From positions 124,001 through 188,000 of the forward strand of contig NZ_JAUNTJ010000004.1 in assembly GCF_030538755.1 (NCBI RefSeq): a stretch of 64,000 bases of DNA, written 5' to 3'. The notes below the pieces were generated by a model, which searched no databases, was not told the origin of the DNA, and saw nothing but the letters and a program-made list of their open reading frames with translations. Source of the stretch: Paracoccus sp. (in: a-proteobacteria) (GTDB lineage Bacteria > Pseudomonadota > Alphaproteobacteria > Rhodobacterales > Rhodobacteraceae). Position numbers and translations under genes: made by a program. Within the stretch, counting starts at the first letter, position 1; each line of letters starts with the position of its first letter. Shown here in pieces: positions 7,118-31,942 of the stretch.

Positions 7118-8617
7118 TCAGCCCCGCGGCGCCCTCGGCGGTTTCCCCTCGCCCCGAGGGCGCCCCTTGGGGCCGCCCGGCTTGGGACCGGCCCCTTTCG
7201 GACCACCAAAACGCGGCTTGCGCGGACCATCGCCATCTTCGCGACGTGGGCCAGAGCCGAACGCGCGCGGTTTACGCGGACCTTCACCATCCTCGCGGCG
7301 CGGGCCGTTTTTGCTCCAGCGGGGTTTGCGCGGGGTGTCGCCCTCGCTGTTACGCGGGCCGGCGAAATCACGGGGCTTGCGCGGGCGGTCGTCATCCTCG
7401 CGGCGGGGGCGGTCGTCGCCATAGGCGCGGGGTTTGCGGTCGCTGTCCAGCGGACGCGGTTTGCGCGGCCGGTCGCCAAAATCGCGGGCCCCATCGCCGT
7501 CACGGCGCGGGCCGGTGCCAAAGCTGCGCGGCTTGCGCGGGGCATCGCCGTCTTCACGGCGCGGGCGGTCGCCAAAGCGGGGCTTGCGGTCGCCAAAGCT
7601 GCGCGATTTGCGCGGGGCGTCGCCGTCTTCGCGGCGCGGGCGGTCGCCAAAGCGGGGCTTGCGGTCGCCATCCTCGCGCGGCGGGCGGTCGCCAAAGGCG
7701 CGCGGTTTGCGCGGGGCGTCGCCGTCTTCGCGGCGCGGGCGGTCGCCAAAGCGGGGCTTGCGGTCGCCATCCTCGCGCGGCGGGCGGTCGCCAAAGCGGG
7801 GTTTGTCGCCAAAGCGGCGGGCGGCGGGGGCTTCGTCTTCTTCGCCGGTCAGCAGGCCGCCCAACTGGTCGCGCAGCACGCGGCGCTTGATTTCGCGCAC
7901 CTCGTTCGGCTCCATCCCGGTCAGGCGGAAGGGACCATAGGCGATGCGGATCAGCCGGTTCACGATCAGCCCGACATGCGCCATCGCACGGCGGATTTCG
8001 CGGTTCCTGCCCTCGCGGATGCCGACGGTCAGCCAGGCGTTCGCGCCCTGCTGGCTGTCCAGGCGGATCTCCATCGGGGCGAAATCCTCGCCGTCGATGG
8101 TGGCACCGCGGCGCAGGGGATCAAAGGTCAGCTCGCTTGGCTGGCCGTTCACGCGCACCCGATAGCGCCGCAGCCAGCCGGTCGCGGGCAGTTCCAGCCG
8201 CCGCTTCAGCTCGCCGTCATTGGTCAGCAGCAGCAGCCCTTCGGAGTTCAGGTCAAGCCGGCCCACGCTCATCACGCGGGGCAGATCGCGGGGCAGCGCG
8301 TCAAAGACGGTCTGGCGGCCCTTTTCATCCGATTCCGATGTGACCAGCCCGACGGGTTTGTAATACATCCACAGCCGGGTTTCCTGCGGCTCGTCCAGCT
8401 TTTTGCCATCGACCGTCACCCGGTCGGTGGGCAGAATATCCAGCGCCGGGCTGTTGATGACGGTGCCATTCACGGCCACGCGGCCTTCGACGATCATCCG
8501 CTCGGCCTCGCGGCGGCTGGCGACACCGGCGCGGGCCATCACCTTGGCGATGCGTTCACCATTGCTGGCGGGGCCGGTTTCGGGGGTATCGGGCGTTTCG
8601 GGGGTCTGGTCGGTCAT
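7118..8617 (-). CDS. rluB: 23S rRNA pseudouridine synthase RluB-type with repeat-rich basic tail
   Basis: 499 residues. An S4 RNA-binding domain (about 20-70) is followed by the RsuA/RluB catalytic domain, with the catalytic Asp in GRLDLNSEGLLLL and the conserved KPVGLVTS and REGRNREIRRA motifs. From about residue 260 to the end the protein is a disordered tail of Arg, Asp, Gly, Pro and Lys built on repeats such as RFGDRPRREDGD and APRKPR. It should modify uridine in helix 89 of 23S rRNA. The start at 8617 has AGGAG about 9 bases upstream; a 52-codon extension lacks a site. The tail probably adds non-specific RNA affinity. Confidence 0.88.
   Translation of the reverse strand: MTDQTPETPDTPETGPASNGERIAKVMARAGVASRREAERMIVEGRVAVNGTVINSPALDILPTDRVTVDGKKLDEPQETRLWMYYKPVGLVTSESDEKGRQTVFDALPRDLPRVMSVGRLDLNSEGLLLLTNDGELKRRLELPATGWLRRYRVRVNGQPSELTFDPLRRGATIDGEDFAPMEIRLDSQQGANAWLTVGIREGRNREIRRAMAHVGLIVNRLIRIAYGPFRLTGMEPNEVREIKRRVLRDQLGGLLTGEEDEAPAARRFGDKPRFGDRPPREDGDRKPRFGDRPRREDGDAPRKPRAFGDRPPREDGDRKPRFGDRPRREDGDAPRKSRSFGDRKPRFGDRPRREDGDAPRKPRSFGTGPRRDGDGARDFGDRPRKPRPLDSDRKPRAYGDDRPRREDDDRPRKPRDFAGPRNSEGDTPRKPRWSKNGPRREDGEGPRKPRAFGSGPRREDGDGPRKPRFGGPKGAGPKPGGPKGRPRGEGKPPRAPRG
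7611..7796. repeat. 87-bp perfect direct repeat inside rluB
   Basis: Bases 7611-7697 recur exactly at 7710-7796, a 99-base (33-codon) period. Shorter variants of the same units cover about 7200-7810. The repeats are in frame and encode the charged tail of RluB. Confidence 0.85.
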
Positions 8618-8725
8618 GGCGAAATCTCCTGCGCATCGCTGCGGTGGTAAAGAACCTGCGTTACGCTTAACGCGCCACAAAGGAAAGCGTTTCCTTTCGT
8701 CGTTCACGCAGCCATGATCCGGGCC

Positions 8726-9610
8726 ATGATCGACCGTCTTAACATGTTCATGGTTCTGGCCCGCGAGCGTCACTTTGGCCGCGCCGCCGAATCGCTGGGG
8801 ATTACGCAGCCGTCGCTGTCATCGGCGCTGAAAACGCTGGAGGATCAGCTGGGCGTGCAACTGGTCCGGCGCGGCAGCCGCTTTCAGGGCCTGACGCCCG
8901 AGGGCGAACGGGTGCTGGGCTGGGCGCGGCGGATCGTCGGCGATGCCCGCGCGCTAGAGGCCGAGATGGCCGCCATGCGGCGCGGCATCACCGGGCGGCT
9001 GCGCATCGGCGTGATCCCCACCGCCATGCCGCGCATCGCCGCGCTGACCACGCCGTTTCTGTCCGCGCATCCCGATGCGGGCGTCACCATCCTGTCGCGG
9101 TCATCCGACGAAATCCGCGACCAGATCGCCGCGCTGGAACTGGATGCAGGCGTCACCTATCTGGAAAACGAGCCGCTGGGCCGGGTGCAGGTCCGCCCGC
9201 TGTATCGCGAAAGCTATTGCCTGATCGACCGGGGCAGCGGCACCGGACCCGCCGACTGGGCCGAGGCCGCCGCCCGCCCCCTGTGCCTGCTGACCCCCGA
9301 TATGCAGAACCGGCGCATCGTATCGGCGCATCTGGCGGCACATGGCCCCGCCCCGGCCCCGCGCATCGAAAGCAATTCCATGCTGGCGATCCTGTCGCAT
9401 GTGGCGACCGGCCAATGGGCAGCGGTTCTGCCCCGCGCGCTGGCGCAGGGCCTGCCGCTGCCTGCCGGGGTCCATGCCCGTGATCTGCCGGGCGCTGCGG
9501 GGCAGATGGTCGGCCTTGTCGTGGCCGACCGCGACCCGCAGCCGCCCATCGTCGCCGCGCTGCTGGAAGCAGGGGCGACGATTGACGATGGCTCAGAGGC
9601 GATAGACTAA
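8726..9610 (+). CDS. LysR-family transcriptional regulator, likely of the fds operon
   Basis: A 294-residue LysR regulator. The N-terminal helix-turn-helix includes HFGRAAESLGITQPSLSSALKTLE, followed by a linker and an effector-binding domain starting at TGRLRIGVIPTAMPRI. The start at 8726 places the usual few residues before the HTH; an ATG at 8714 is an alternative, and neither has a clear ribosome site. It sits 88 bases upstream of fdsG in the same direction. LysR-type FdsR proteins control fds operons in Cupriavidus, so a formate-operon regulator is the best guess, not proven here. Confidence 0.85.
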   Translation: MIDRLNMFMVLARERHFGRAAESLGITQPSLSSALKTLEDQLGVQLVRRGSRFQGLTPEGERVLGWARRIVGDARALEAEMAAMRRGITGRLRIGVIPTAMPRIAALTTPFLSAHPDAGVTILSRSSDEIRDQIAALELDAGVTYLENEPLGRVQVRPLYRESYCLIDRGSGTGPADWAEAAARPLCLLTPDMQNRRIVSAHLAAHGPAPAPRIESNSMLAILSHVATGQWAAVLPRALAQGLPLPAGVHARDLPGAAGQMVGLVVADRDPQPPIVAALLEAGATIDDGSEAID

Positions 9611-9698: not shown

Positions 9699-10187
9699 AT
9701 GAGCCAGCACGTTGACGGCATCCCGTTTGACAGCGATGCGCAAGACCTCCTGACCACCATCATCGCCCGCCACAGCGGGCGCGAAGGCCCGCTGCTGCCG
9801 ATCCTGCATGATGTTCAGGCCGAATGGGGCATGATCCCCGATGCCGCGCAGCCGCTGATCGCCGTCGCCCTGAACCTGACGCGGGCCGAGGTTTACGGCG
9901 TCGTCAGCTTTTACCACGATTTCCGCGACCACCCCACGGGCCGCCACACCCTGCGCCTGTGCCGGGCCGAGGCGTGCAAGTCGATGGGCGCCGATGCGCT
10001 GGCCGATCAGGTGCGCGCGTCGCTGGGGATCGACTGGCACGAAACCACGCCGGACGGGCGGGTGACGCTGGAACCCGTGTTCTGCCTTGGCCTGTGCGCC
10101 TGCGCGCCCGCCGGGCAGGTGGACGGGCAATTGCACGGGCGGCTGACCGCCGACCGGGTGGCCGATCTGACGGGGGGCATGGCATGA
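9699..10187 (+). CDS. fdsG: NAD-dependent formate dehydrogenase, gamma subunit
   Basis: 162 residues of the NuoE/HoxE thioredoxin-like type. The [2Fe-2S] ligands are visible as Cys88, Cys93, Cys129 and Cys133 (LCRAEACKS and FCLGLCACAP). With FdsB it forms the diaphorase part of the soluble formate dehydrogenase, which oxidises formate to CO2 and reduces NAD+. Length fits FdsG and it is the first gene of the operon, after the LysR gene. Its TGA overlaps the fdsB ATG as ATGA. Confidence 0.93.
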   Translation: MSQHVDGIPFDSDAQDLLTTIIARHSGREGPLLPILHDVQAEWGMIPDAAQPLIAVALNLTRAEVYGVVSFYHDFRDHPTGRHTLRLCRAEACKSMGADALADQVRASLGIDWHETTPDGRVTLEPVFCLGLCACAPAGQVDGQLHGRLTADRVADLTGGMA

Positions 10188-11713
10188 AGATCTACGTTCC
10201 CATCGACGCCGCCGCCCGCGCGCTTGGCGCCGATCAGGTCGCCCGCGCCGTCGCGGCCGAGGCCAAAGCCCGTGGCGAAGCCGTGCAGATCATCCGCAAC
10301 GGCAGCCGGGGCATGGTCTGGCTGGAACCCTTGGTCGAGGTGGAACAGGACGGGGTGCGCATGGGCTTTGGCCCCATGACCCCGGATGCGGTGGCGCAGC
10401 TTTGGGATGGCGGCGATCTGGCGCTTGGCCCGGTTGACGATCTGCGCTGGATGCGGCTGCAAACCCGGCTGACCTTTGCCCGCACCGGCGTCATCGACCC
10501 GGTGGATTACGACGATTATGCCGCCCACGGCGGGCTAAAGGGTCTGCGCGCCGCGATCAGCGCCGGGCCTGAATCCATCGTGCAGACCATCACCGATTCC
10601 GGTCTGCGCGGGCGCGGCGGGGCCGGCTTCCCCACCGGCATCAAATGGAAAACCGTCGCGGGCGCGCCCGGCCCGCAGAAATACATCGTCTGCAACGCCG
10701 ACGAGGGCGACAGCGGCACCTTTGCCGACCGGATGCTGATGGAAGGCGACCCCTTCTGCCTGATCGAGGGCATGGCCATCGCCGGCATCGCCGTGGGCGC
10801 GACGCAGGGCTATATCTATATCCGCAGCGAATACCCCGACGCGATCCGCGCCATGAATGACGCCATCGCCGCCGCCCGCGCGCGCGGCATGTTGGGCGGC
10901 AGCGTGCTGGGCAGCGGCTTTGCCTATGACATGGAGGTGCGCGTCGGCGCAGGGGCCTATGTCTGCGGCGAGGAAACCAGCCTGCTGAACAGTCTGGAGG
11001 GCAAGCGCGGCGTGGTCCGCGCCAAACCGCCCATTCCGGCGCTGCATGGCTTTCTGGGCCGGCCGACAGTGGTCAACAACGTCATCTCGCTGGGGTCGGT
11101 GCCGTGGATCATGGCGAATGGCGCGGCGGCCTATGCGGCGTATGGCATCGGGCGGTCCAAGGGCACGATCCCGCTGCAAATCGCCGGAAACGTGAAACAC
11201 GGCGGGCTGTTCGAGATCGCCTTTGGCGTCTCCCTGCGCCAGATCATCGAGGATTTCGGCGGCGGCACCGCCTCGGGGCGGCCGGTCAAGGCGGTGCAGT
11301 CGGGCGGCCCCCTGGGCGCCTATTTCCCGCCCGCGCTGTTCGACACGCCCTTCTGTTATGAAGAATTCGCCGGGCAGGACGGTCTGGTTGGCCATGCGGG
11401 CGTGGTGGTGTTCGACGATACGACCGACATGCTGGACATGGCCCGTTTCGCGATGGAGTTCTGCGCCATCGAATCCTGCGGCAAATGCACACCCTGCCGC
11501 ATCGGATCGGTGCGCGGCGTCGAAACGCTGGACCGCATCGCATCGGGCGACGAAACCGGCATCCCGATCCTGCGCGACCTGTGCAACACGATGAAATGGG
11601 GCAGCCTCTGCGCGCTTGGCGGGTTCGCGCCCTATCCGGTCTTGTCGGCGCTGAACCACTTCCCCGACGATTTCACCGGACGATCCGCCCCGCAGCAAGA
11701 GGCGGCGGAATGA
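10184..11713 (+). CDS. fdsB: NAD-dependent formate dehydrogenase, beta subunit
   Basis: 509 residues of NuoF type with an N-terminal thioredoxin-like extension. The FMN/NAD region includes GLRGRGGAGFPTGIKW and YIVCNADEGDSGTFADR, and the C-terminal [4Fe-4S] motif is ESCGKCTPCRIGS plus a later Cys in LCALGGF. It passes electrons from FdsA iron-sulfur clusters to FMN and NAD+. The start at 10184 gives a four-base overlap with fdsG; the longer reading frame upstream is fdsG out of frame. The stop overlaps the following VOC gene as ATGA. Confidence 0.95.
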   Translation: MKIYVPIDAAARALGADQVARAVAAEAKARGEAVQIIRNGSRGMVWLEPLVEVEQDGVRMGFGPMTPDAVAQLWDGGDLALGPVDDLRWMRLQTRLTFARTGVIDPVDYDDYAAHGGLKGLRAAISAGPESIVQTITDSGLRGRGGAGFPTGIKWKTVAGAPGPQKYIVCNADEGDSGTFADRMLMEGDPFCLIEGMAIAGIAVGATQGYIYIRSEYPDAIRAMNDAIAAARARGMLGGSVLGSGFAYDMEVRVGAGAYVCGEETSLLNSLEGKRGVVRAKPPIPALHGFLGRPTVVNNVISLGSVPWIMANGAAAYAAYGIGRSKGTIPLQIAGNVKHGGLFEIAFGVSLRQIIEDFGGGTASGRPVKAVQSGGPLGAYFPPALFDTPFCYEEFAGQDGLVGHAGVVVFDDTTDMLDMARFAMEFCAIESCGKCTPCRIGSVRGVETLDRIASGDETGIPILRDLCNTMKWGSLCALGGFAPYPVLSALNHFPDDFTGRSAPQQEAAE

Positions 11714-12123
11714 TAACCGGCCTGTCGCATATCACCCTTGCCTGCCGCGATCTGGACCGGATGGCCGCGAACCTGACCAGCGTTCCGGGCGCGCAGCAGG
11801 TTTACGACAGCGGCGACCGCAGGTTTTCGCTGTCGCGCGAACGGTTTTTTGTGGCGGGCGGGCTGTGGATTGCGGTGATGCAGGGCGATCCCCTGCCCGA
11901 ATGCAGCTATAACCGCATCGCCTTTCAGATCGAGGATGCCGATTATGATCGGCTGTATCAGCGCATCCAGTCGCTTGGGCTGGAGATCCGTCCACCACGC
12001 CCAAGGGTCGCGGGCGAAGGCCGCTCGATCTGTTCTTATGATGACGACAATCACCTGTTCGAACTGCACACCGGAACGCTGGACCAGCGGCTGAACCATT
12101 ACGCCGCGTCGGAGGCCGCATGA
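11710..12123 (+). CDS. FosX-like fosfomycin hydrolase homologue (VOC family) inside the fds operon
   Basis: 137 residues of the glyoxalase/VOC fold. It matches the FosX pattern closely: start MITGLSHITL, SGDRRFSLSRERFF, GLWIAVMQGDPL, RPRVAGEGRSI and NHLFELHTGTL. The FosX general base Glu44 and metal ligands His7 and Glu118 are present. The second metal ligand, His69 in FosX, is Arg69 here (codon CGC at 11914-11916), which should weaken or abolish Mn2+ binding. It overlaps fdsB and fdsA by ATGA on both sides, so it is translated with formate dehydrogenase. FosX opens the fosfomycin epoxide with water; whether this copy does so is doubtful. It may be a repurposed VOC protein. Base usage matches the operon. 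Confidence 0.82.
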   Translation: MITGLSHITLACRDLDRMAANLTSVPGAQQVYDSGDRRFSLSRERFFVAGGLWIAVMQGDPLPECSYNRIAFQIEDADYDRLYQRIQSLGLEIRPPRPRVAGEGRSICSYDDDNHLFELHTGTLDQRLNHYAASEAA

Positions 12124-15005
12124 AAGACTTTATCATCCCGCCCAAGGAATGGACCCGCGACATGGGCACGCCCGCTGCGCATGGCGCGCCGGTCAGCCTG
12201 ACGATCGACGGCATCGCCGTTACCGTGCCAGCGGGCACCTCGGTCATGCGCGCCGCCGCCGAGGCCGGGATCACCGTGCCGAAACTGTGCGCGACCGACA
12301 ATATCGAGGCCTTCGGGTCGTGCCGGCTGTGCGTCGTCGCGATCGAGGGGATGCGCGGCACGCCCGCATCCTGCACCACGCCCGTAGCCGAAGGCATGGT
12401 CGTTCACACCCAAACCGACGAAATCGCCCGCATTCGTCGTGGCGTGATGGAGCTGTATATCTCCGATCACCCGCTGGATTGCCTGACCTGCGCCGCCAAT
12501 GGCGATTGCGAATTGCAGGATATGGCGGGCGCGGTCGGCCTGCGCGAGGTGCGCTTTGACCCCGGCAAGAACCATTTTGCCACCCGCCAGAACGGCGAGG
12601 CCAACCCGGAATACCGGCCCAAGGATCAGACCAACCCCTATTTCACCTTTGACCCGGCGAAATGTATCGTCTGTTCCCGCTGCGTCCGCGCCTGCGAAGA
12701 GGTGCAGGGCACCTTTGCCCTGACCATCGAAGGGCGCGGCTTTGACAGCCGGGTATCGGCGGGGATTGCGGGGGATGACTTTCTGTCCTCGGATTGCGTC
12801 AGTTGCGGGGCCTGTGTGCAGGTCTGCCCCACCGCGACGCTGATCGAAAACAAGGTGATCGACATCGGCACCCCCGACCGCGTGGTGAAAACCACCTGCG
12901 CCTATTGCGGTGTCGGGTGCAGCTTTGACGCCCATATGCGCGGCGAAACCGTGGTCAAGATGGTGCCCAGCAAGGACGGGCAGGCCAACCGGGGCCATAG
13001 CTGCGTCAAGGGCCGCTTTGCCTGGGGCTATGCCACCCATGCCGACCGCATCCTGTCGCCGATGATCCGCGACCAGATCACCGATCCGTGGCGCGAAGTG
13101 TCGTGGGACGAGGCATTGGGCTTTGCCGCCGACCGGCTGCGGCAGGCGCAGGCCGATCACGGGCAGAACGCCATCGGGGTCATTACCTCGTCGCGCTGCA
13201 CCAACGAAGAAACCTATCTGGTGCAGAAGCTGACCCGCGCGGTCTTTGGCAATAACAACACCGACACCTGTGCGCGGGTGTGCCATTCGCCCACGGGCTA
13301 TGGGCTGCGGTCCACCTTTGGCACCTCGGCCGGGACGCATGATTTCGATTCGGTCGAGCAGACCGATCTGGCGCTGGTCATCGGCGCGAACCCGACCGAC
13401 GGGCACCCGGTGTTCGGGTCGCGCCTGCGCCGCCGTCTGCGGCAGGGGGCGGGGCTGATCGTCATCGACCCGCGCCGCATCGACCTGCTGGAAACGCCGC
13501 ATATGGGCACGGGCCTGCATCTGCCGCTGCGCCCCGGCACCAATGTCGCCGTCATCAGCGCGCTGGCCCATGTCATCGTGACGGAACAGCTGTATGACGA
13601 AGCCTTTATCCGCACCCGCTGCGACTGGGACGAATTCAGCGACTACGCCGCCTTTATCAGCGACAACCGCCATTCCCCGGAAGAAGTGGAAAAGCTGTCC
13701 GGCGTGCCCGCAGACCTGATCCGTCAGGCTGCCCGCGCCTATGCGGCGGCCCCGCGCGCCAGCATTTATTACGGGCTGGGCGTGACGGAACACAGCCAGG
13801 GATCGACCACCGTCATCGCGATTGCCAACATTGCGATGATGACCGGCAATATCGGCACCCCCGGCACCGGCGTGAACCCTCTGCGCGGGCAGAACAACGT
13901 GCAGGGGTCGTGCGACATGGGATCGTTCCCGCATGAATACCCCGGCTATCGCCATGTCAGCGACCCGGAAACGCGGGCGCTCTATGAACAGGCCTGGGGT
14001 GTGCCCCTGTCGGATGAGCCGGGCCTGCGCATCCCCAACATGTTCGATCAGGCTTTGGCCGGGCGGTTCCGCGGCCTGTATTGTCAGGGCGAAGACGTGG
14101 TGCAATCCGATCCCGACACCCGCCATGTCACCAGCGCGCTGAAGGCGATGGACATCGTGATCGTGCAGGATCTGTTCCTGAACGAGACCTCGAACTATGC
14201 CCATGTGTTCCTGCCCGGTTCCAGCTTTCTGGAAAAGGACGGCACGTTTACCAATGCCGAACGCCGCATCAATATGGTGCGCCGCTGTATGCCGCCCGCC
14301 CAAGGCTATGCCGATTGGGAAATCACGCAGATGCTGGCCAACCGCATGGGCGCGGGCTGGAGCTATACCCACCCGCGCGAAATCATGGATGAAATCGCCG
14401 CGACCACGCCCAGCTTCGCGGGCGTCAGCTTTGACCTGCTGGACCGGGTGGGTTCGGTGCAATGGCCCTGCAATGATGCCGCGCCGCTTGGCACGCCCTT
14501 GATGCATGTCGATGGTTTCGTGCGCGGCAAGGGCCGGTTCATCAATACCGAATATGTCGCGACCGAGGAACGCACCGGCGCGCGCTTTCCCTTGCTGCTG
14601 ACCACCGGGCGGACGCTGACGCAATACAACGTCGGCGCCCAGACGCGGCGCACCGGCAACACCGCCTGGCACCCCGAGGATATGCTGGAAATTCACCCGC
14701 ATGACGCCGAAACACGCGGGGTGCGGGATGGCGATTTCGTGCGCCTCACCTCGCGCGCGGGGGATACGACGATGCGGGCAAAGATCACCGACCGGGTGGC
14801 GCCGGGCGTGGTCTATACCACCTTCCACCATCCCGATGCACAGACCAATGTCGTCACCACCGACAATTCCGACTGGGCCACCAACTGCCCGGAGTTCAAG
14901 GTGACGGCTGTGCAGGTGTCGCCCTCGAACGGGCCAACGGAATGGCAGAGCGACTATGCCGCCCATTCCCGCCTGTCGCGCCGCATCCTGCCTGCGGCGG
15001 AATAA
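12120..15005 (+). CDS. fdsA: Molybdenum formate dehydrogenase, alpha (catalytic) subunit
   Basis: 961 residues. The N-terminal NuoG-like part carries a [2Fe-2S] set (Cys57, 68, 71, 85), a His117-Cys121-Cys124-Cys130 cluster site and two [4Fe-4S] sets (Cys182/185/188/192 and 226/229/232/236). The molybdopterin oxidoreductase domain starts with a further cluster (Cys260, 263, 267, 295). The active-site pair is Cys388-His389 in ARVCHSPTG, Cys being the expected Mo ligand. The bis-MGD-binding C-terminal domain includes TGRTLTQYN. This layout is that of Rhodobacter capsulatus FdsA. It oxidises formate in the cytoplasm. Confidence 0.96.
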   Translation: MKDFIIPPKEWTRDMGTPAAHGAPVSLTIDGIAVTVPAGTSVMRAAAEAGITVPKLCATDNIEAFGSCRLCVVAIEGMRGTPASCTTPVAEGMVVHTQTDEIARIRRGVMELYISDHPLDCLTCAANGDCELQDMAGAVGLREVRFDPGKNHFATRQNGEANPEYRPKDQTNPYFTFDPAKCIVCSRCVRACEEVQGTFALTIEGRGFDSRVSAGIAGDDFLSSDCVSCGACVQVCPTATLIENKVIDIGTPDRVVKTTCAYCGVGCSFDAHMRGETVVKMVPSKDGQANRGHSCVKGRFAWGYATHADRILSPMIRDQITDPWREVSWDEALGFAADRLRQAQADHGQNAIGVITSSRCTNEETYLVQKLTRAVFGNNNTDTCARVCHSPTGYGLRSTFGTSAGTHDFDSVEQTDLALVIGANPTDGHPVFGSRLRRRLRQGAGLIVIDPRRIDLLETPHMGTGLHLPLRPGTNVAVISALAHVIVTEQLYDEAFIRTRCDWDEFSDYAAFISDNRHSPEEVEKLSGVPADLIRQAARAYAAAPRASIYYGLGVTEHSQGSTTVIAIANIAMMTGNIGTPGTGVNPLRGQNNVQGSCDMGSFPHEYPGYRHVSDPETRALYEQAWGVPLSDEPGLRIPNMFDQALAGRFRGLYCQGEDVVQSDPDTRHVTSALKAMDIVIVQDLFLNETSNYAHVFLPGSSFLEKDGTFTNAERRINMVRRCMPPAQGYADWEITQMLANRMGAGWSYTHPREIMDEIAATTPSFAGVSFDLLDRVGSVQWPCNDAAPLGTPLMHVDGFVRGKGRFINTEYVATEERTGARFPLLLTTGRTLTQYNVGAQTRRTGNTAWHPEDMLEIHPHDAETRGVRDGDFVRLTSRAGDTTMRAKITDRVAPGVVYTTFHHPDAQTNVVTTDNSDWATNCPEFKVTAVQVSPSNGPTEWQSDYAAHSRLSRRILPAAE

Positions 15006-15008
15006 CGG

Positions 15009-15830
15009 ATGGAGGATCACGCCGCCGCATCCGCCCAACCGGCGGCCCCGCGCCGCTGGCAGGATGGTGCGTGGATCACCGGCGACGCCCCGCCGCCGCC
15101 AGCGGAATCGCCGGTGGCCATCGTGATCGACGGGCAAAGTCAGGCGGTGCTGATGGCCACACCCGCCGATCTGCATGATCTGGCCGTAGGCTTTGCCCTG
15201 ACCGAAGGCATGATCGCCAGTGCCGCCGATGTGCAGTCGTTCGAACAGGTCGCCGTGGAAACGCGCGGCCTGCCGGGGGCCGAAGCGCGGCTGTGGCTGC
15301 GCCCTGGCATCGCCGCCGCCCTGTCGGAACGACGCCGCAAGATGCTTGGCCCGGTCGGCTGCGGGCTGTGCGGGATCGACAGCATCGAACAGGCGCTGCC
15401 CGAACTGCTGCCCGTGACCAGCGCTTTGCGCATCACCCCCGCCGATATTCAGGCAGCCATGGCGGCGCTGAGCGCGGGGCAGATCCGCTGGCGTCAGACC
15501 CCCGCCATCCACGGTGCCTGTTTCTGGCACCCCGCCGCCGCCCCCACCGTGCGCGAGGACGTGGGCCGCCATAACGCGCTGGACAAGGTATCGGGCGCGC
15601 TGGCCCGCGACGGGCGCACCGGGGCGGGCGGGGTGATCGCCATGACCTCGCGCCTGTCGGTTGATCTGGTGCAAAAGGCGGCGCGGATGCAGGCCGCCGT
15701 GGTCATCGGCGCATCGGCCCCGACGACGCTGGCGATCACCTGGGCACAGGCGGCGGGCATCACCCTGATCGGGCGCGCGCGCGGCACCGGCTTTGACCTT
15801 TACACCCACCCCGAACGACTGAAAGGCTGA
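15009..15830 (+). CDS. fdhD: Formate dehydrogenase accessory sulfurtransferase FdhD (FdsC)
   Basis: 273 residues of the FdhD family. The CxxC motif is present as Cys118-Gly-Leu-Cys121 (VGCGLCGID), and the second conserved block reads REDVGRHNALDKV and MTSRLSVDLVQKAA. FdhD relays sulfur to the molybdenum cofactor before insertion into formate dehydrogenase. In fds operons this position is called fdsC. It begins 3 bases after the fdsA stop and ends 3 bases before fdsD, so all are one transcription unit. Confidence 0.93.
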   Translation: MEDHAAASAQPAAPRRWQDGAWITGDAPPPPAESPVAIVIDGQSQAVLMATPADLHDLAVGFALTEGMIASAADVQSFEQVAVETRGLPGAEARLWLRPGIAAALSERRRKMLGPVGCGLCGIDSIEQALPELLPVTSALRITPADIQAAMAALSAGQIRWRQTPAIHGACFWHPAAAPTVREDVGRHNALDKVSGALARDGRTGAGGVIAMTSRLSVDLVQKAARMQAAVVIGASAPTTLAITWAQAAGITLIGRARGTGFDLYTHPERLKG

Positions 15831-15833
15831 CCC

Positions 15834-16055
15834 ATGGCAGACAAGCTGATCCGCATGGCCACGCAGATTGCCGATTTCTGGCGTTACCAGCCGGGACAAC
15901 CGGAACGGGCCGTGGCCGAACATATCAACGATTACTGGTCCTATCAGATGCGACGTGATTTTCTGGCCGCGATCAAAGGGCAACCACAGGCCGATCCGGT
16001 GGTTCAGGCCACCGCCGCGCTGATCGACCTGCCCGATCACGACACCGCTGCCTGA
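15834..16055 (+). CDS. fdsD: Formate dehydrogenase delta subunit
   Basis: 73 residues matching the small FdsD family: MADKLIRMATQIADFWRY near the start and HINDYWSYQMRRDFL in the middle. It is a stabilising subunit of the FdsABG complex rather than a redox protein. It is the last gene of the operon; no clear terminator precedes accA 66 bases later. Confidence 0.9.
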   Translation: MADKLIRMATQIADFWRYQPGQPERAVAEHINDYWSYQMRRDFLAAIKGQPQADPVVQATAALIDLPDHDTAA

Positions 16056-16121
16056 CAGCCTGCTGCGTTGCAATCGCGGCCAGCCCGCCGCATATATGGC
16101 GCAGCAGCAGCGGAGCGGTGG

Positions 16122-17081
16122 ATGACCTATCTGGATTTCGAAAAACCTCTGGCCGACATCGAAGGCAAAGCCGAAGAATTGCGCGCAATGGCCCGCAAGG
16201 GTGAAGGCGCGGTCGATGTGGAAAAAGAGGCCGCCGCGCTGGACAAAAAAGCCGGCGACATGCTGCGCGATCTGTATAAATCGCTGGACCCTTGGCGCAA
16301 AACGCTGGTGGCGCGCCACCCCGACCGGCCACATTGCGGCGCCTATATCGACGCGCTGTTCACCGAATATACGCCGCTGGCAGGCGACCGCACCTTTGGC
16401 GACGACCATGCGGTGATGGGCGGGCTGGCGCGGTTCCACGACGCGCCCTGCGTGGTGATCGGCCATGAAAAGGGCAATGACACCAAATCGCGCCTGACCC
16501 ATAATTTCGGCATGGCCCGGCCCGAAGGCTATCGCAAGGCGATCCGGCTGATGGACATGGCGCACCGCTTTGGCCTGCCGGTCATCACGCTGGTCGATAC
16601 CCCCGGCGCCTATCCCGGCAAGGGCGCCGAGGAACGCGGCCAGTCCGAGGCGATCGCCCGCTGCACCCAGAAATGTCTGGAAATCGGCGTGCCGCTGGTC
16701 TCGGTCATCATCGGCGAGGGCGGATCAGGCGGGGCGGTGGCCTTTGCCACGGCCAACCGCATCGCCATGCTGGAACATTCGATCTATTCGGTGATCTCGC
16801 CCGAGGGCTGCGCCTCGATCCTGTGGAAAGACAGCGAACGGATGCGCGACGCCGCCGAGGCGCTGCGCCTGACCGCGCAAGACCTGCACAAGCTGGGCGT
16901 GATCGACCGCATCATCGGCGAACCCATGGGCGGCGCGCAGCGCGACCCGGTGGCCGCGATCACCGCCACTGGCAAGGAAATTGCCGCGATGCTGAGCGAT
17001 CTGAAAGGCAAGAAACCGGCCGAGCTGATCCGCGACCGGCGGCAGAAATTCCTGAACATGGGCAGCTCTGCGCTGGTCTGA
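16122..17081 (+). CDS. accA: Acetyl-CoA carboxylase carboxyltransferase, alpha subunit
   Basis: 319 residues, usual AccA length. The N-terminal helical part starts [20 protein letters not shown], and the crotonase-like carboxyltransferase core includes [30 protein letters not shown] and [13 protein letters not shown]. With AccD it transfers CO2 from biotinyl-AccB to acetyl-CoA, giving malonyl-CoA for fatty acids. The start at 16122 fits the family N-terminus; 18 extra open codons upstream lack similarity. It stands alone downstream of the fds operon. Confidence 0.96.
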
Positions 17082-18556: not shown

Positions 18557-19317
18557 CCGCGAAACCCGGCCTCGGCCATCAGCCGGTCGGAATTGCCTTC
18601 GATCTGGTTTTCCAGATCGGCCATAAAGGTCACGCTGTCGGTGCCGGGGGGGATGACGGGCAGGAACTCGACCACCGCGCGGCCCGGCCGGATGCCCCAG
18701 CCCTTGCGTGGCCAGAACAGCCCGGTGTTCACCGCAACCGGCACCACATCCAGCCCCGTCGCCGCACGGATCGAGGCGACGCCGTGCTTATACGCCTTGC
18801 GCTGCCCCGGCAGGGTGCGCGTGCCCTCGGGGTAGATGATAAGCTGACCCAGACTGCGTTCGGCGATCCGTTCCGACACCCGTTCGGAAATCGCCGTCAT
18901 CGCATCCTTGCCGCGTGAACGGTCGATGGGAATGCAGCCGACCTTATAGGCATACCAGCCCATGATCGGCACGCGCATCACCTCGCGCTTCATGATAAAG
19001 GCGCGGCGGGGGACGGCGTGGGAAATCACCATGATGTCCCAGAAGCTTTGATGCTTTGCCGCCACGATGCAATCATGCGTGGGCGGCGTGCCACGCACCT
19101 CGGCGATCAGGCCCAGATAGACGCGCGCCGACCAGACCACATGCCCGATCCACACGGTCGAGACGCGGATCGCCCCCTCGCGCCCGCCGGTGGCGACCTT
19201 GAACAGCCCCCAAAAGCCGATCAGGATCGTGGCCAGCGCGATATGCAGATAAAAGGCGACGTTGCGCAGATATTGCACAAAGCTCAGCGGGCCGGGGGTG
19301 GGGGAATGGTTGCTCAT
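18553..19317 (-). CDS. plsC: 1-acyl-sn-glycerol-3-phosphate acyltransferase
   Basis: 254 residues with one N-terminal membrane segment (about 18-42) and the PlsC domain. The HX4D catalytic motif is KHQSFWD and the phosphate-binding block is YPEGTRTLPG. It adds the second acyl chain to make phosphatidic acid at the inner membrane. The start at 19317 gives a four-base ATGA overlap with ftsX. Co-transcription with ftsEX ties lipid supply to division genes; this arrangement recurs in the family. Confidence 0.92.
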   Translation of the reverse strand: MSNHSPTPGPLSFVQYLRNVAFYLHIALATILIGFWGLFKVATGGREGAIRVSTVWIGHVVWSARVYLGLIAEVRGTPPTHDCIVAAKHQSFWDIMVISHAVPRRAFIMKREVMRVPIMGWYAYKVGCIPIDRSRGKDAMTAISERVSERIAERSLGQLIIYPEGTRTLPGQRKAYKHGVASIRAATGLDVVPVAVNTGLFWPRKGWGIRPGRAVVEFLPVIPPGTDSVTFMADLENQIEGNSDRLMAEAGFRG

Positions 19318-28043: not shown

Positions 28044-29390
28044 TCACGAGTTATAGGCGTTCTCGCCATGGGTGGTCAGGTCAAGACCCTGACGCTCATC
28101 GTTTTGCGCCACGCGCAGGCCCGTGACCGCCTTGACGATATAGATCGCCACCAGCGACACCACCGCCGACCAGATGATCGCAATCACCACACCCAGCACC
28201 TGCACATAAAGCTGTTCGCCCATCGACACGTCCACGCCCTGACCGCCAAAGGCCGGGAACACGAACACGCCGGTCAGAACCGCGCCGATGATGCCGCCGA
28301 CGCCATGGATGCCGAACACGTCAAAGCTGTCGTCGATGCCGATGCGCGACTTCATGCTGTTGACGAACCACATGCAGGCCAGCCCGGTGATCGCGCCGAT
28401 GGCAATCGCCCCCATCGGCCCGACAAAGCCCGCCGCCGGAGTCACGCCGACCAGACCGGCAATCGCCCCGGACACGCCGCCCAGCAAGGACGGATGACCG
28501 CGCAGCACCCATTCGCCAAAGGCCCATGCCAGCGCCGCCGCCGCCGTCGCGACCACCGTGTTCACCACCGCCAGCGCGGCAATGCCGTCTGCCGCCAGCG
28601 CCGAACCGGCGTTGAACCCGAACCAGCCCATCCACAGCAGCGCCGCGCCGATAAAGGTAAAGGTCAGGTTATGCGGGGCCATCAGCTCGCGCCCGTAACC
28701 GATCCGCGGACCGGCCACATAGGCCGCCACCAGACCGGCCACACCGGCGTTGATGTGAATCACCGTCCCGCCCGCGAAATCCAGTGCACCGTGCTGGAAC
28801 AGATAGCCGCCCGACTGCCAGACCATGTGGCAGATCGGCAGATAGGACAGCACGAACCAGATCAGGCAGAACAGCAGGACTGCGCTGAACTTCATCCGCT
28901 CGGCCGTGGCGCCGACGATCAGCGCGGTGGCGATGCAGGCAAAGGCAAGCTGGAACACGACGAAGTTATATTCGTAGATGTCCCCCTCCAGCGTATCCAC
29001 CGAGATACCCGACAGGAACATCTTGGACAGATCGCCGATAAAGGCGCTGACACCGCCGTTTTCCGCACCGGTAAAGGCCAGCGAATAGCCAAACATCACC
29101 CACAACAGCGCCACGATGCAGAAAACGGTAAACACCTGCATCAGCACCGACAGCATGTTCTTGCCACGGGCCAGCCCGCCATAGAACAGCGCCAACCCCG
29201 GCACGCTCATCAGCATGACAAGGATCGCCGAGACCATCACCCAGGTCACATTGCCGGTATCGGCAACCGGCACCACCGCAACGGCGGCTTCCGTCACGGT
29301 TTCGATCACCGGGGCGGCGGCTTCCTGAGCCAAAGCGGGCAACGCGGGCAGCGCAGCCATCGGCACGGATGTTAACAAAGCTTTGTTCAT
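28044..29390 (-). CDS. amtB: Ammonium transporter AmtB
   Basis: 448 residues with a signal-like N-terminus (cleavage near ALA, residue 21) and eleven membrane helices. Pore landmarks are visible: His in LPICHMVWQ and the GIHGVGGIIG helix, plus FDVFGIHG. It conducts ammonia/ammonium under nitrogen limitation. It usually follows the PII gene glnK; none is present upstream here, and no sigma-54 site was recognised in the 266-base gap to the PBP gene. Confidence 0.93.
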   Translation of the reverse strand: MNKALLTSVPMAALPALPALAQEAAAPVIETVTEAAVAVVPVADTGNVTWVMVSAILVMLMSVPGLALFYGGLARGKNMLSVLMQVFTVFCIVALLWVMFGYSLAFTGAENGGVSAFIGDLSKMFLSGISVDTLEGDIYEYNFVVFQLAFACIATALIVGATAERMKFSAVLLFCLIWFVLSYLPICHMVWQSGGYLFQHGALDFAGGTVIHINAGVAGLVAAYVAGPRIGYGRELMAPHNLTFTFIGAALLWMGWFGFNAGSALAADGIAALAVVNTVVATAAAALAWAFGEWVLRGHPSLLGGVSGAIAGLVGVTPAAGFVGPMGAIAIGAITGLACMWFVNSMKSRIGIDDSFDVFGIHGVGGIIGAVLTGVFVFPAFGGQGVDVSMGEQLYVQVLGVVIAIIWSAVVSLVAIYIVKAVTGLRVAQNDERQGLDLTTHGENAYNS

Positions 29391-29656
29391 CGTCTCACCT
29401 GTCTTGAAGCGGGCAGCCGGAAGGGCCGCGTTTCCTCTTTTTGATCGTCAGCGGGCGGGGCGATGCACAAGAACAGGGCGCAGCGCCGCAGCGCAGAAAA
29501 CCGGATTGCGCAAAAAACAGGCTGTCTGTAGGCGCAATGCCCGCGCGCCGCGCAGATCACAGATCGGTAAGCCGAGTTTCCATACAGCGATTCTTGCGCT
29601 ATGCTACCTTTTCAAAGAGCCGGAAAACCGGCGGGCAGCGAACACAGGCACAACGC

Positions 29657-31942
29657 ATGAAACGACCCACCGGGACGCCCAGACGGGCGGGCAAAGGCCC
29701 CGTCGCCGACAAGCGCGACTTTGCCACCACCGAAAAGCCCAAGCGCCACACCCCGCGCCAGAAAAACCGGCGCGGCAATATGGTGACGCGCGGCGTGGCG
29801 GGCATGGTTGTGCTGGTCTGGCGCATCCTGTGGGGCAGCGCATGGCGGCTGGCACTGGTGCTGGCGCTGATCCTGTTTGGCGCAACGGCCTATTATTACA
29901 ACACCCTGCCCCAGGCGGCGGCACTGTTCGATGGCCGCGCGCGCGGCTCTGTCACGATGCTGGACCGCGATGGCGGGGTGTTCGCGTGGCGCGGCGAAAC
30001 ATTCGGCACGGTATCGTCCGACAAGATCGCCCCGGTGCTGAAAAACGCCGTCATCGCGACCGAGGACCGGCGCTTTTACAATCACCTTGGCGTCGATCCA
30101 CGCGGCATCGCCGGGGCGATGCGCAACAATATTCAGGCCGGGCGCGGCGCGTTCGAGGGCGCGGGCGGATCGACCATCACCGTGCAGGTGGCCAAACTGC
30201 TGTGCCTTGGCCAGACCTTCGACCCGACCCAGTGGAAGGACGAGGCCGAATTCGAACAGGATTGCCGCGTCAGCAGCCTGTGGCGCAAGGTCAAAGAGGT
30301 GCCCTATGCCTTTGCGCTGGAGGCCAAATACTCCAAGGATGAAATCCTGAACATCTATATGAACCGGTCCTATCTTGGCGCCGGTGCGCGCGGGTTCGAG
30401 GCCGCCTCGCAGCGTTACTTCAACAAACCCGCCAGCGACGTGACCGCCCCCGAAGCGGCGATGCTGGCCGGTGCCCTGCGCGCCCCCAGCCGCTATGCCC
30501 CGACCGCGAATCTGCAACGCGCACAGGATCGCGCCAACGTGATTCTGGGCCTGATGCACGAAGAGGGCTATCTGAACGACGCCGAACTGACGCAGGCGCG
30601 CGCCAACCCCGCCACGCTGTCGCGGGCAGCAGCCGCGCGGGCGGGCGGCTATTTCGCCGATTGGGTGATGGATTCCGGCCCCGGCTTCCTGACCAGCGAA
30701 ACCACCGAGGATGTGACCATCCGCACCACCTTTGACCAGGGCATTCAACGCGCGGCGGAACGTGCGCTGGCGCGGGTGTTCGACGAAAAGGTCAAGGACG
30801 GCTCCAAGGCGCAGGCCGCCGTCGTGGTGATGAGCGCGGACGGCGCCGTGCGCGCAATGATCGGCGGGCGCGATAACGTGGCCGCAGGCACCTTTAACCG
30901 CGCCACGCAGGCGAAACGGCAAACCGGGTCGTCGTTCAAGCCCTTCGTCTTTGCCGCCGCGCTGAACGCCGGTTACACGCCCGACAGCCGGGTTCTGGAT
31001 GCGCCGCTGACGATCAGCATCCGCGGCTCGGCCCCGTGGACGCCGCAGAACTATACCCGCCGTCACCGCGGCGAAATCAGCCTGACCACCGCGCTGGCCA
31101 ATTCGATCAACACCGCCACCATCCGCCTGCAAGAGGCCGTCGGCCGGGCCGAGGTGCGCCGCGTGGCCCAAGCCTTTGGCGTGGCCAGCGACCTGACCAC
31201 CAGCCCGTCGCTGGGGCTGGGGGCGTCCGAATCGACGCTGCTGGAAATGACCGGCGCCTATGCCGGCATCCGCAACGGCGGCACCGCCGTGCATCCCTAT
31301 GGCCTGATCGAGCTGCGCATCAAGGGCGATGGTGCCCCGCTGATGGGGCAAGCCGGGGGGCTGGGGCAGCAGGTCATTTCCAACCGCGCGGCCGGACAGT
31401 TGATCTTCATGATGGAGCAGGTGATCCAGAACGGCACCGGCACCCGCGCGAAACTGCCCGGCAACCGCCCGGCAGCGGGCAAGACCGGCACCACCTCATC
31501 CTATCGCGATGCGTGGTTCATCGGCTTTACCCAGCAATATGTGACCGGCGTCTGGATGGGCTATGACGACAACACCCCGCTGAATGACGTGACCGGCGGC
31601 GGTCTGCCAGCCGAGATCTGGCAGGCGGTGATGGCCGAAATCCACGACGGCCTGCCGGTCGAACCGCTGCTGGCCGTTTCGCCCGATGGCGGCGGGCTGA
31701 TTATCTTGCAGGGCGAGGGGATGCCCACGGTCGTCACCTCGGGCAGCGCGCAAGACCCGCTGGCCGCCGCCTTGGCACAGGCGATCGCGCCCGAACAGGC
31801 CAGCAGCGCCACCGTCACCAACGCCCCTGCCCCGCCCGGCACCGCACCGCAAACCCCCGCCAGCAGCACCAGCGCAGGCAGCACCCCCGAGGTGCCCGCC
31901 GATGACGCACTGGCCGACGCGCTGCGGGGGATATTGAACTGA
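29657..31942 (+). CDS. Class A penicillin-binding protein (transglycosylase/transpeptidase)
   Basis: 761 residues: basic cytoplasmic tail, membrane helix (about 62-80), GT51 domain with catalytic Glu136 in ATEDRRFYNHLG and GGSTITVQVAKLL, then a transpeptidase domain with SxxK in TGSSFKPF, SxN in ANSINTAT and KTGT in AGKTGTTSS. The C-terminal ~70 residues are Pro/Ser/Thr-rich. Between the GGSTIT block and RKVKE is an insert of ~27 residues (about 183-209) bounded by Cys183 and Cys203, absent from typical PBP1a. It polymerises and crosslinks peptidoglycan. The start at 29657 precedes a plausible cytoplasmic tail. Confidence 0.92.
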   Translation: MKRPTGTPRRAGKGPVADKRDFATTEKPKRHTPRQKNRRGNMVTRGVAGMVVLVWRILWGSAWRLALVLALILFGATAYYYNTLPQAAALFDGRARGSVTMLDRDGGVFAWRGETFGTVSSDKIAPVLKNAVIATEDRRFYNHLGVDPRGIAGAMRNNIQAGRGAFEGAGGSTITVQVAKLLCLGQTFDPTQWKDEAEFEQDCRVSSLWRKVKEVPYAFALEAKYSKDEILNIYMNRSYLGAGARGFEAASQRYFNKPASDVTAPEAAMLAGALRAPSRYAPTANLQRAQDRANVILGLMHEEGYLNDAELTQARANPATLSRAAAARAGGYFADWVMDSGPGFLTSETTEDVTIRTTFDQGIQRAAERALARVFDEKVKDGSKAQAAVVVMSADGAVRAMIGGRDNVAAGTFNRATQAKRQTGSSFKPFVFAAALNAGYTPDSRVLDAPLTISIRGSAPWTPQNYTRRHRGEISLTTALANSINTATIRLQEAVGRAEVRRVAQAFGVASDLTTSPSLGLGASESTLLEMTGAYAGIRNGGTAVHPYGLIELRIKGDGAPLMGQAGGLGQQVISNRAAGQLIFMMEQVIQNGTGTRAKLPGNRPAAGKTGTTSSYRDAWFIGFTQQYVTGVWMGYDDNTPLNDVTGGGLPAEIWQAVMAEIHDGLPVEPLLAVSPDGGGLIILQGEGMPTVVTSGSAQDPLAAALAQAIAPEQASSATVTNAPAPPGTAPQTPASSTSAGSTPEVPADDALADALRGILN

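What the first reader, a model, noticed from the sequence alone, without database searches (positions are those of the whole stretch)
11710..12123. FosX-like gene embedded in the formate dehydrogenase operon with a changed metal ligand
Seen: a 137-residue VOC protein with FosX motifs lies between fdsB and fdsA, overlapping both by ATGA. Known: FosX needs His7, His69 and Glu118 for metal and Glu44 as base. Here His69 is Arg69 while the other three are kept. Inference: either a resistance enzyme captured into a housekeeping operon and now losing metal binding, or a VOC protein with a new role in formate dehydrogenase biology or formate stress. fds operons of Cupriavidus and Rhodobacter run G-B-A-C-D without it.
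Basis: partly seen in the sequence, partly recalled or inferred. Interest (0 to 1): 0.75.

Follow-up and report, generated by a model that had tools for sequence, protein, structure and literature searches.

The report
Decaying fosfomycin-resistance gene inside formate operon
A gene related to fosfomycin-destroying enzymes sits exactly in the stop/start overlap between two formate dehydrogenase genes; related genes sit the same way in other, unrelated operons, and this copy has lost key active-site residues, so it is probably a passenger losing its function rather than a new part of formate metabolism.

Summary
An intact 137-codon FosX homologue lies between fdsB and fdsA, overlapping both by ATGA, with Arg at the His69 metal-ligand position.

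Arg69 is private to this genome: 110 of 111 other distinct FosX relatives have His, and the one exception (Gln) is a frameshifted copy. The window copy also lost Tyr108 and Phe109. A codon model gives omega 0.49 on its branch against 0.11 elsewhere (p = 0.0007); neutrality is not rejected. Its sister copy in the same place (L002) looks constrained. So the enzyme is most likely decaying.

The insertion is rare: 3 of 125 genomes searched in the window's genus (107 have a strong fdsB match), plus Shinella pollutisoli. FosX is not tied to formate. Close relatives sit in stop/start overlaps of other operons: phnI|phnJ (known for M. loti), an ABC ATPase|permease pair and, on the upstream side, prfA|prmC. 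The junctions often share GGAGGCnGCnGAATGA, the Shine-Dalgarno/stop-start coupling motif. In Shinella and one ABC lineage the gene's 3' tail repeats the local upstream gene's tail.

Best reading: fosX settles in register at translational-coupling junctions; this copy is losing its chemistry. A formate role is not supported.

The parts
11710..12123 (+). FosX homologue (VOC fold family by sequence), 137 aa, probably catalytically dead
   Evidence: NCBIfam NF000222 182.7 bits over a cut-off of 170; relaxed selection
11914..11916 (+). codon 69, CGC = Arg in place of the metal ligand His
   Evidence: His in 110 of 111 other distinct relatives
12031..12036 (+). codons 108-109, Cys-Ser in place of Tyr-Phe; Tyr108 falls on FosA Tyr100 (fosfomycin hydrogen bond) by a constant offset of 8
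   Evidence: FosA residue roles from passages of PMC11933065; the offset was worked out by hand from landmark residues, not from a computed alignment with FosA
11698..11713 (+). 5' coupling junction AGAGGCGGCGGAATGA: internal Shine-Dalgarno plus fdsB stop / fosX start overlap
12111..12123 (+). 3' coupling junction GGAGGCCGCATGA: Shine-Dalgarno for fdsA inside the fosX tail, fosX stop / fdsA start overlap
10184..11713 (+). fdsB (diaphorase subunit); overlaps fdsG by ATGA; name by order and NuoF-type matches below cut-off
12120..15005 (+). fdsA (molybdenum catalytic subunit, 961 aa)
   Evidence: TIGR01591 922 bits over cut-off
9699..10187 (+). fdsG
   Evidence: NF004638 225 bits over cut-off
15009..15830 (+). 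fdhD/fdsC
   Evidence: TIGR00129 169.4 bits over cut-off
15834..16055 (+). fdsD-like 73-aa ORF (name by position and recall; no NCBIfam match)
8714..9610 (+). LysR-type regulator upstream of fdsG (many LysR-type models match, none of those shown over its cut-off)

Best explanation
This is a FosX homologue (by descent a Mn-dependent fosfomycin epoxide hydrolase) that inserted in register into the ATGA stop/start overlap of fdsB and fdsA. What came in was fosX with a short tail that carries the Shine-Dalgarno and stop/start overlap for fdsA, so fdsB, fosX and fdsA stay translationally coupled. FosX of this lineage settles repeatedly at such coupling junctions (phnI|phnJ, an ABC ATPase|permease pair, fdsB|fdsA, and the prfA side of prfA|prmC). 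The junctions tend to share the short sequence GGAGGCnGCnGAATGA, which probably serves as microhomology for recombination and as a ready-made coupling signal. In this genome the enzyme is no longer kept for its chemistry: a metal ligand (H69R), the fosfomycin-binding tyrosine (Y108C), F109S and several usually hydrophobic positions have changed, so it probably no longer hydrolyses fosfomycin and has no part in formate oxidation. Shown: position, overlaps, private losses, relaxed selection, recurrent settling in other operons, empty sites in relatives. Inferred: loss of activity, insertion by microhomology, and that the gene stays open partly because ribosomes must read through it to reach fdsA.
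For: Anatomy. Family. Private losses: (His69 in 110 of 111 others, Tyr108 in 109 of 111, Phe109 in 111 of 111). Polarised changes with L003 as outgroup: 13 missense and 9 synonymous codons on the window branch against 6 and 7 on the L002 branch, 4 missense and 2 synonymous not assigned; I11A, I21N, L26P, R65C, H69R and F109S lead to residues absent at that site in 105 relatives. Codon model: omega 0.485 against 0.106, 2dlnL 11.5, p 0.0007; omega = 1 not rejected, p 0.19; the L002 branch 0.188, p 0.39. The only other copy found without His69 is a frameshifted gene (L164). Empty fdsB|fdsA junction with the exact motif in 28 of 28 loci without FosX examined. In 7 genomes the exact motif occurs 23 times against 2231 GGAGG-N(4-9)-ATGA sites; all 3 matches in G028, which has no FosX match, are the fdsB|fdsA junction (twice, across a scaffold gap) and the phnI|phnJ junction. 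Tail duplication: the Shinella FosX tail shares 12 nt with the local fdsB tail of a Shinella with an empty junction and at most 7 nt with 40 other junction tails; ABC L128 shares 13 against at most 9. A premature stop in an upstream gene stops downstream translation at such overlaps in Haloferax volcanii gene pairs: passages of PMC6728339.
Against: No activity was measured. Observed missense changes (13) are about half of the neutral expectation (25), so some constraint remains or relaxation is recent. The FosX window-branch counts do not differ significantly from the L002 branch (Fisher p 0.50). Against fdsB on the same branch the difference depends on the outgroup: p 0.025 with L067, 0.019 with L068, 0.18 with L003. 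Another intact relative (L007) also has Cys at 108. Absence of nonsense codons is uninformative (about 1 expected, P0 0.37), so the read-through constraint is not shown. For the three Paracoccus copies the tail test does not discriminate local from generic tails, and ABC L133 fails it; ABC L121 and L127 were not tested. The pairing of 5' and 3' junctions beats shuffles only weakly (p 0.017 for 38 loci; 0.059 after thinning to 16). AU tests on 65 of the 111 sequences do not reject a single fds clade (p 0.39), so the number of separate insertions is unproved from the FosX tree. The motif was defined after seeing the junctions. At prfA|prmC it is only partly present. The genome is an incomplete MAG (86.8 %).
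Confidence: 0.66

Rival explanations
1. The protein has taken a new role in formate dehydrogenase biology (assembly, redox or formate stress), and the active-site changes are adaptive loss of the old chemistry.
For: Embedded between subunit genes in four genomes of two orders; PhnJ was not found in these four genomes, so a phosphonate role is unlikely there; omega below 1.
Against: Only 3 of the 107 genus genomes with a strong fdsB match have it; 20 of 21 Shinella genomes do not have the fds-embedded copy (18 without a FosX match, 2 with FosX in phn); the sister copies keep His69, Tyr108 and Phe109; the same gene family sits in unrelated operons; changes are spread over the protein (L26P, I21N) rather than a focused remodelling.
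Confidence: 0.1
2. It is still a working fosfomycin (or related epoxide) hydrolase with an altered site, using the operon only for expression.
For: Open frame, NCBIfam FosX score above cut-off, His7, Glu44, Glu118 and Arg127 kept; omega below 1; fosX deletions in Mesorhizobium lower fosfomycin resistance (passage of PMC9973854).
Against: His69 is a metal ligand kept in 110 of 111 relatives and Tyr108 is kept in 109 of 111; relaxed selection.
Confidence: 0.15
3. Arg69 and the other odd residues are sequencing, assembly or binning artefacts of a metagenome-assembled genome.
For: MAG with exact tracts shared with another MAG; H69R is a single transition; fosX against fdsB is not significant with outgroup L003 (p 0.18).
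Against: Missense excess is in fosX rather than in fdsA (9 missense to 36 synonymous on the same branch, p 0.002, outgroup L003) or, with two of three outgroups, fdsB (p 0.025, 0.019); fosX lies outside the exact tracts of 200 bases or more; many separate codon changes, none a frameshift or stop.
Confidence: 0.07
4. The shared junction sequence is only convergent: any gene that becomes translationally coupled in these GC-rich genomes evolves towards GGAGGCnGCnGAATGA, and fosX was inserted at random and then tuned. (This rival concerns the insertion mechanism only.)
For: The motif is Shine-Dalgarno plus stop/start codons with Ala-Ala-Glu codons; the pairing test is weak, and the Paracoccus tails are uninformative.
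Against: The motif is rare: 23 exact places against 2231 GGAGG-ATGA sites in 7 genomes, and 0 of 20 other ATGA junctions found by a crude ORF filter in 204 kb of this genome; relatives without FosX at the site already carry it there (28 of 28 fds, 2 of 3 phn, looser form 13 of 26 ABC); local tail matches in Shinella and ABC L128.
Confidence: 0.35

Closest known systems
FosX of Mesorhizobium loti (1r9c), in the phn C-P lyase operon
   Same: Nearest solved relative (172.8 bits; that 1r9c is the M. loti protein is recalled); also embedded in a housekeeping operon; close relatives found here sit phnI-fosX-phnJ, most with ATGA overlaps. The phn location is in print (passages of PMC6122793 and PMC12413358).
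   Different: Keeps His69, Tyr108 and Phe109; host operon is phosphonate, not formate.
FosX of Listeria (2p7k-2p7q)
   Same: 164-166 bits, aligned end to end with the same motifs (that these are the Listeria protein is recalled).
   Different: Keeps the metal ligand; an intrinsic resistance enzyme (start of abstract and passages of PMC6122793).
fdsGBACD operons of Paracoccus and relatives
   Same: Same gene order and fdsB|fdsA ATGA junction.
   Different: 28 of 28 loci examined without FosX have the plain junction; only 3 of the 125 genus genomes searched carry the insert.
Stop/start overlaps with termination-reinitiation
   Same: ATGA overlaps at both ends with an internal Shine-Dalgarno (abstract and passages of PMC6728339).
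   Different: That work, as far as the passages seen go, is about coupling, not about such overlaps as insertion sites.

Membership tests
FosX fosfomycin hydrolase (NCBIfam NF000222) | Sequence above the curated family cut-off | tested here: met
   182.7 bits, cut-off 170
FosX fosfomycin hydrolase (NCBIfam NF000222) | Mn2+ site His7, His69, Glu118 | tested here: not met
His7 and Glu118 present, position 69 is Arg.
FosX fosfomycin hydrolase (NCBIfam NF000222) | General-base glutamate (Glu44) | tested here: met
FosX fosfomycin hydrolase (NCBIfam NF000222) | Fosfomycin-contact tyrosine (FosA Tyr100, here 108) | tested here: not met
   Cys108; Tyr in 109 of 111 relatives, Cys in L007, Asn in L159
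FosX fosfomycin hydrolase (NCBIfam NF000222) | Hydrolyses fosfomycin | not testable with these tools
   needs purified protein
VOC superfamily fold | Paired beta-alpha-beta-beta-beta modules | tested here: inconclusive
Formate dehydrogenase accessory gene | Conserved with fds across species | tested here: not met
   3 of 125 genus genomes searched, 107 of them with a strong fdsB match; 1 of 21 Shinella
Mobile gene cassette or transposon | Transposase, attC or other element sequence between the gene and its neighbours | tested here: not met
   fosX directly overlaps fdsB and fdsA, leaving no room for other sequence; the insert against the empty site is the gene with its tail

The most novel reading that the evidence does not exclude
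Shine-Dalgarno/stop-start junctions of the form GGAGGCnGCnGAATGA act as natural seamless insertion sites: their shared sequence gives microhomology, and recombination there drops a gene into an operon in register with both couplings intact. FosX is a gene lineage that has moved this way between C-P lyase, ABC transporter and formate dehydrogenase operons, and the window holds a copy that lost its function by missense change after such a move.
Probability: 0.35. Interest if true: 0.75.

Novelty: new variant of a known kind. Interest (0 to 1): 0.5.

Why it matters
It shows a resistance-enzyme gene family that lives inside the coupling junctions of unrelated housekeeping operons, with no mobile element between the genes, and so a concrete and testable route by which single genes can join operons while keeping translation coupled. 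It also shows that annotation pipelines can call a resistance gene (the window protein passes the curated FosX cut-off) where a metal ligand is lost.

Tried and rejected
A formate-specific link: L146 (G611) first looked like fdsA-fdhD-fdsD-fosX, but reading the DNA showed a long gap and what looks like a LysE-type gene on the other strand in between (the LysE name is recalled, not searched), so it was dropped.

A phosphonate role in the window genome: PhnJ (PF06007) was not found in G000, G018, G080 or G200 (the first three are MAGs of 86-90 % completeness).

Transfer of fosX with its flanks between Paracoccus lineages: identity of window to L003 is higher in fosX (77-87 % per 138-base bin) than in many bins of fdsB and fdsA (59-88 %), but the step is not sharp; left open.

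Separate insertions proved by the FosX tree: AU tests on 65 of the 111 sequences do not reject one clade for fds, ABC or phn. The case for a separate Shinella insertion rests on FdsA 92 % identity to a Shinella with an empty junction.

A junction-pairing test gave only weak support. Rfam (gathering thresholds) and tRNA scans of the window found nothing. The structure prediction was queued and had not finished at the last look; no fold search was run.

Literature: searches. In those listings I saw no title or abstract start that described fosX in an fds operon or stop/start junctions as insertion sites; the one paper holding both fosX and formate dehydrogenase (PMC10185800) was seen as a listing only. 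This is not a claim that none exists. Papers seen in passages: PMC4790336, PMC12413358, PMC9973854, PMC6122793, PMC11933065, PMC6728339; the other papers were seen as listings with the start of the abstract.

After the filing check I ran (context of L233 and L234, Fisher tests with other outgroups). The new Fisher result with outgroup L003 (p 0.18) led me to lower the confidence of the main reading from 0.68 to 0.66 and to raise the artefact rival from 0.06 to 0.07.

Full report
What is there. The ORF at 11710-12123 is real, intact and placed exactly as described: 137 residues between fdsB (10184-11713) and fdsA (12120-15005), with ATGA overlaps at both ends. fdsG and fdsB also overlap by ATGA. 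The protein passes the curated FosX cut-off (182.7 bits, cut-off 170) and aligns from end to end with solved proteins 1r9c and 2p7k/2p7q (that these are M. loti and Listeria FosX is recalled). Codon 69 is CGC (Arg). His7, Glu44 and Glu118 are kept. FosA Ser98, Asp103, His107, Glu110 and Arg119 fall on Ser106, Asp111, His115, Glu118 and Arg127 here with a constant offset of 8 (worked out by hand), so Tyr100 falls on 108.

How odd is Arg69. The window has Arg, Cys and Ser. The Gln copy (L164, G770) is split over two frames. The two FosB sequences shown also keep His and Tyr-Phe at these places. The 105-sequence set leaves out the window, L002, L003, matches under about 120 residues (so L164) and matches under 50 % identity.

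Is it decaying. Polarised with L003, the window branch since its split from L002 has 13 missense and 9 synonymous codons, the L002 branch 6 and 7; 4 missense and 2 synonymous could not be assigned. The window changes include I11A, I21N, L26P, R65C, H69R and F109S, none of which is seen at its site in the 105 relatives, and Y108C, seen in 1. A codon model on 15 sequences gives omega 0.113 for one ratio; a free window branch takes 0.485 with 0.106 elsewhere (2dlnL 11.5, p 0.0007), and omega = 1 on that branch is not rejected (p 0.19); the L002 branch alone takes 0.188 (p 0.39). On the same branch fdsB has 20 missense and 44 synonymous codons with outgroup L067, 14 and 35 with L068, 13 and 20 with L003; against fosX these give Fisher p 0.025, 0.019 and 0.18, and the 5' part of fdsA (9 and 36, outgroup L003) gives 0.002. 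So a general error rate in this assembly is unlikely but the fdsB contrast depends on the outgroup. Further against: neutral drift would give about 25 missense changes, so constraint is relaxed rather than absent, or the loss is recent; the simple count comparison with the L002 branch is not significant (p 0.50); and the lack of stop codons says nothing, since about one was expected.

How common is the insertion. In the genus of the window (it holds the Paracoccus MAGs L002 = G018 and L003 = G080) 107 of 125 genomes have FdsB at E up to 1e-150 and 8 of 125 have FosX at E up to 1e-20. FosX lies between fdsB and fdsA in three: G000, G018 and G080. In the other five (loci L052-L054, L056, L057) no fds gene lies in the about 1.5 kb held on either side. 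I read the junction itself in 30 loci: 2 have fosX, 28 have the plain overlap, one of them repeated across a scaffold gap (L067). The remaining fdsB genomes were judged by the FosX search alone. In the window's family (394 genomes drawn evenly) 14 have FosX, and only the window's is next to fds. In the family of Shinella pollutisoli 50 of 394 have FosX; of the 50, whose flanks of about 1.5-2 kb I checked, 1 is fdsB-fosX-fdsA (L018/L136). In its genus 3 of 21 have FosX: one in fds (G200), two between phnI and phnJ (G203, G1043). FdsA of L018 is 92 % identical to that of G203, whose fdsB/fdsA junction is empty, so the operon is ordinary for Shinella and the gene is the newcomer.

Where else FosX sits. 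Of 111 distinct FosX proteins, my labels are phn 34, prfA/prmC 17, ABC 5, fds 4 (window included), other 51 (labels; the prfA/prmC label rests on Pfam for one locus, L023, and the ABC label on Pfam for L133 and the L121 and L133 permeases; the rest on sequence clusters). 67 overlap the stop of an upstream ORF, 42 overlap the start of a downstream ORF and 38 do both (ORF-based, so a few chance frames are included). The phn location is known for M. loti (passages of PMC6122793 and PMC12413358), and fosX deletions in Mesorhizobium lower fosfomycin resistance (passage of PMC9973854). The sample is biased, because it was gathered by similarity to the window protein. On the tree 37 of the 51 'other' copies fall in one group with no embedded copy (support 88), but most forks are weak, and AU tests on 65 of the sequences do not reject single origins for fds (p 0.39), ABC (0.63) or phn (0.25).

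The junctions. The exact motif GGAGGCnGCnGAATGA (Shine-Dalgarno, Ala-Ala-Glu codons, stop/start overlap) is at the empty fdsB|fdsA junction in 28 of 28 loci and at 2 of 3 phnI|phnJ junctions without FosX in the genus (one of those three genomes, G008, has a broken fosX elsewhere). A looser form is at 13 of 26 ABC|permease junctions without a FosX match, one of which keeps a relic. In seven genomes the exact motif occurs 23 times against 2231 GGAGG-N(4-9)-ATGA sites; in a 204-kb sample of this genome 0 of 20 other ATGA junctions found by a crude ORF filter have it. In G028, where FosX was not found, all three matches are the fdsB|fdsA junction (twice, across a scaffold gap) and the phnI|phnJ junction. 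Within the window itself the motif with up to 2 mismatches is no more common than in shuffles (2 against 1.17). The motif was chosen after the junctions were seen, so these figures describe and do not prove. A sharper sign is the 3' tail, tested for six copies. In Shinella the last codons of fosX repeat the local fdsB tail (12 nt in one run, against at most 7 with 20 phnI tails and 20 other junctions), and in ABC L128 13 nt against at most 9; the three Paracoccus tails do not discriminate and ABC L133 fails. One ABC relative (G857) keeps only the first 14 codons of fosX at the junction, so the gene also goes away again.

Reading. The gene is a FosX homologue that entered a translational-coupling junction, as its relatives did in other operons. 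A premature stop in an upstream gene prevents translation of the downstream gene at such overlaps in Haloferax volcanii (passages of PMC6728339), so a gene in this place can lose its function by missense change more easily than by stop or frameshift; that step is an inference for this operon. A role in formate metabolism is not needed and not supported. By descent it is a FosX; by the metal-site test it fails, so it should not be filed as a working fosfomycin hydrolase without an assay.

Noticed in passing
window 14136-16582; also 28906-29680, 18710-19017, 12327-12532: Letter-for-letter identity (2447, 775, 308 and 206 bases) with the Paracoccus MAG of L002/G018, while the shared region as a whole is about 89-91 % identical: recent recombination between neighbours in one community, or an assembly chimera.
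   Followed up: partly
L023 3901-6253 and other Microvirga loci: A FosX gene lies between prfA (release factor 1 domains) and prmC (PrmC_N domain), overlapping the stop of the upstream ORF.
   Followed up: partly
L202 (G857): Only the first 14 codons of a fosX remain at an ABC ATPase|permease junction: a relic.
   Followed up: yes
L164 (G770) and L057/L063 (G008): Two further fosX copies are broken over two frames; L164 also has Gln at position 69.
   Followed up: partly
L010: A record titled Bacillus subtilis SK6B4 holds a phn-fosX locus that groups closely with Brucellaceae (Pseudochrobactrum) ones: probably a mislabelled or contaminated assembly.
   Followed up: no
window 7118-8773, - strand: A 551-aa ORF that looks like a pseudouridine synthase (name recalled, not searched) with a long repetitive tail rich in Arg, Asp, Gly and Pro.
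   Followed up: no
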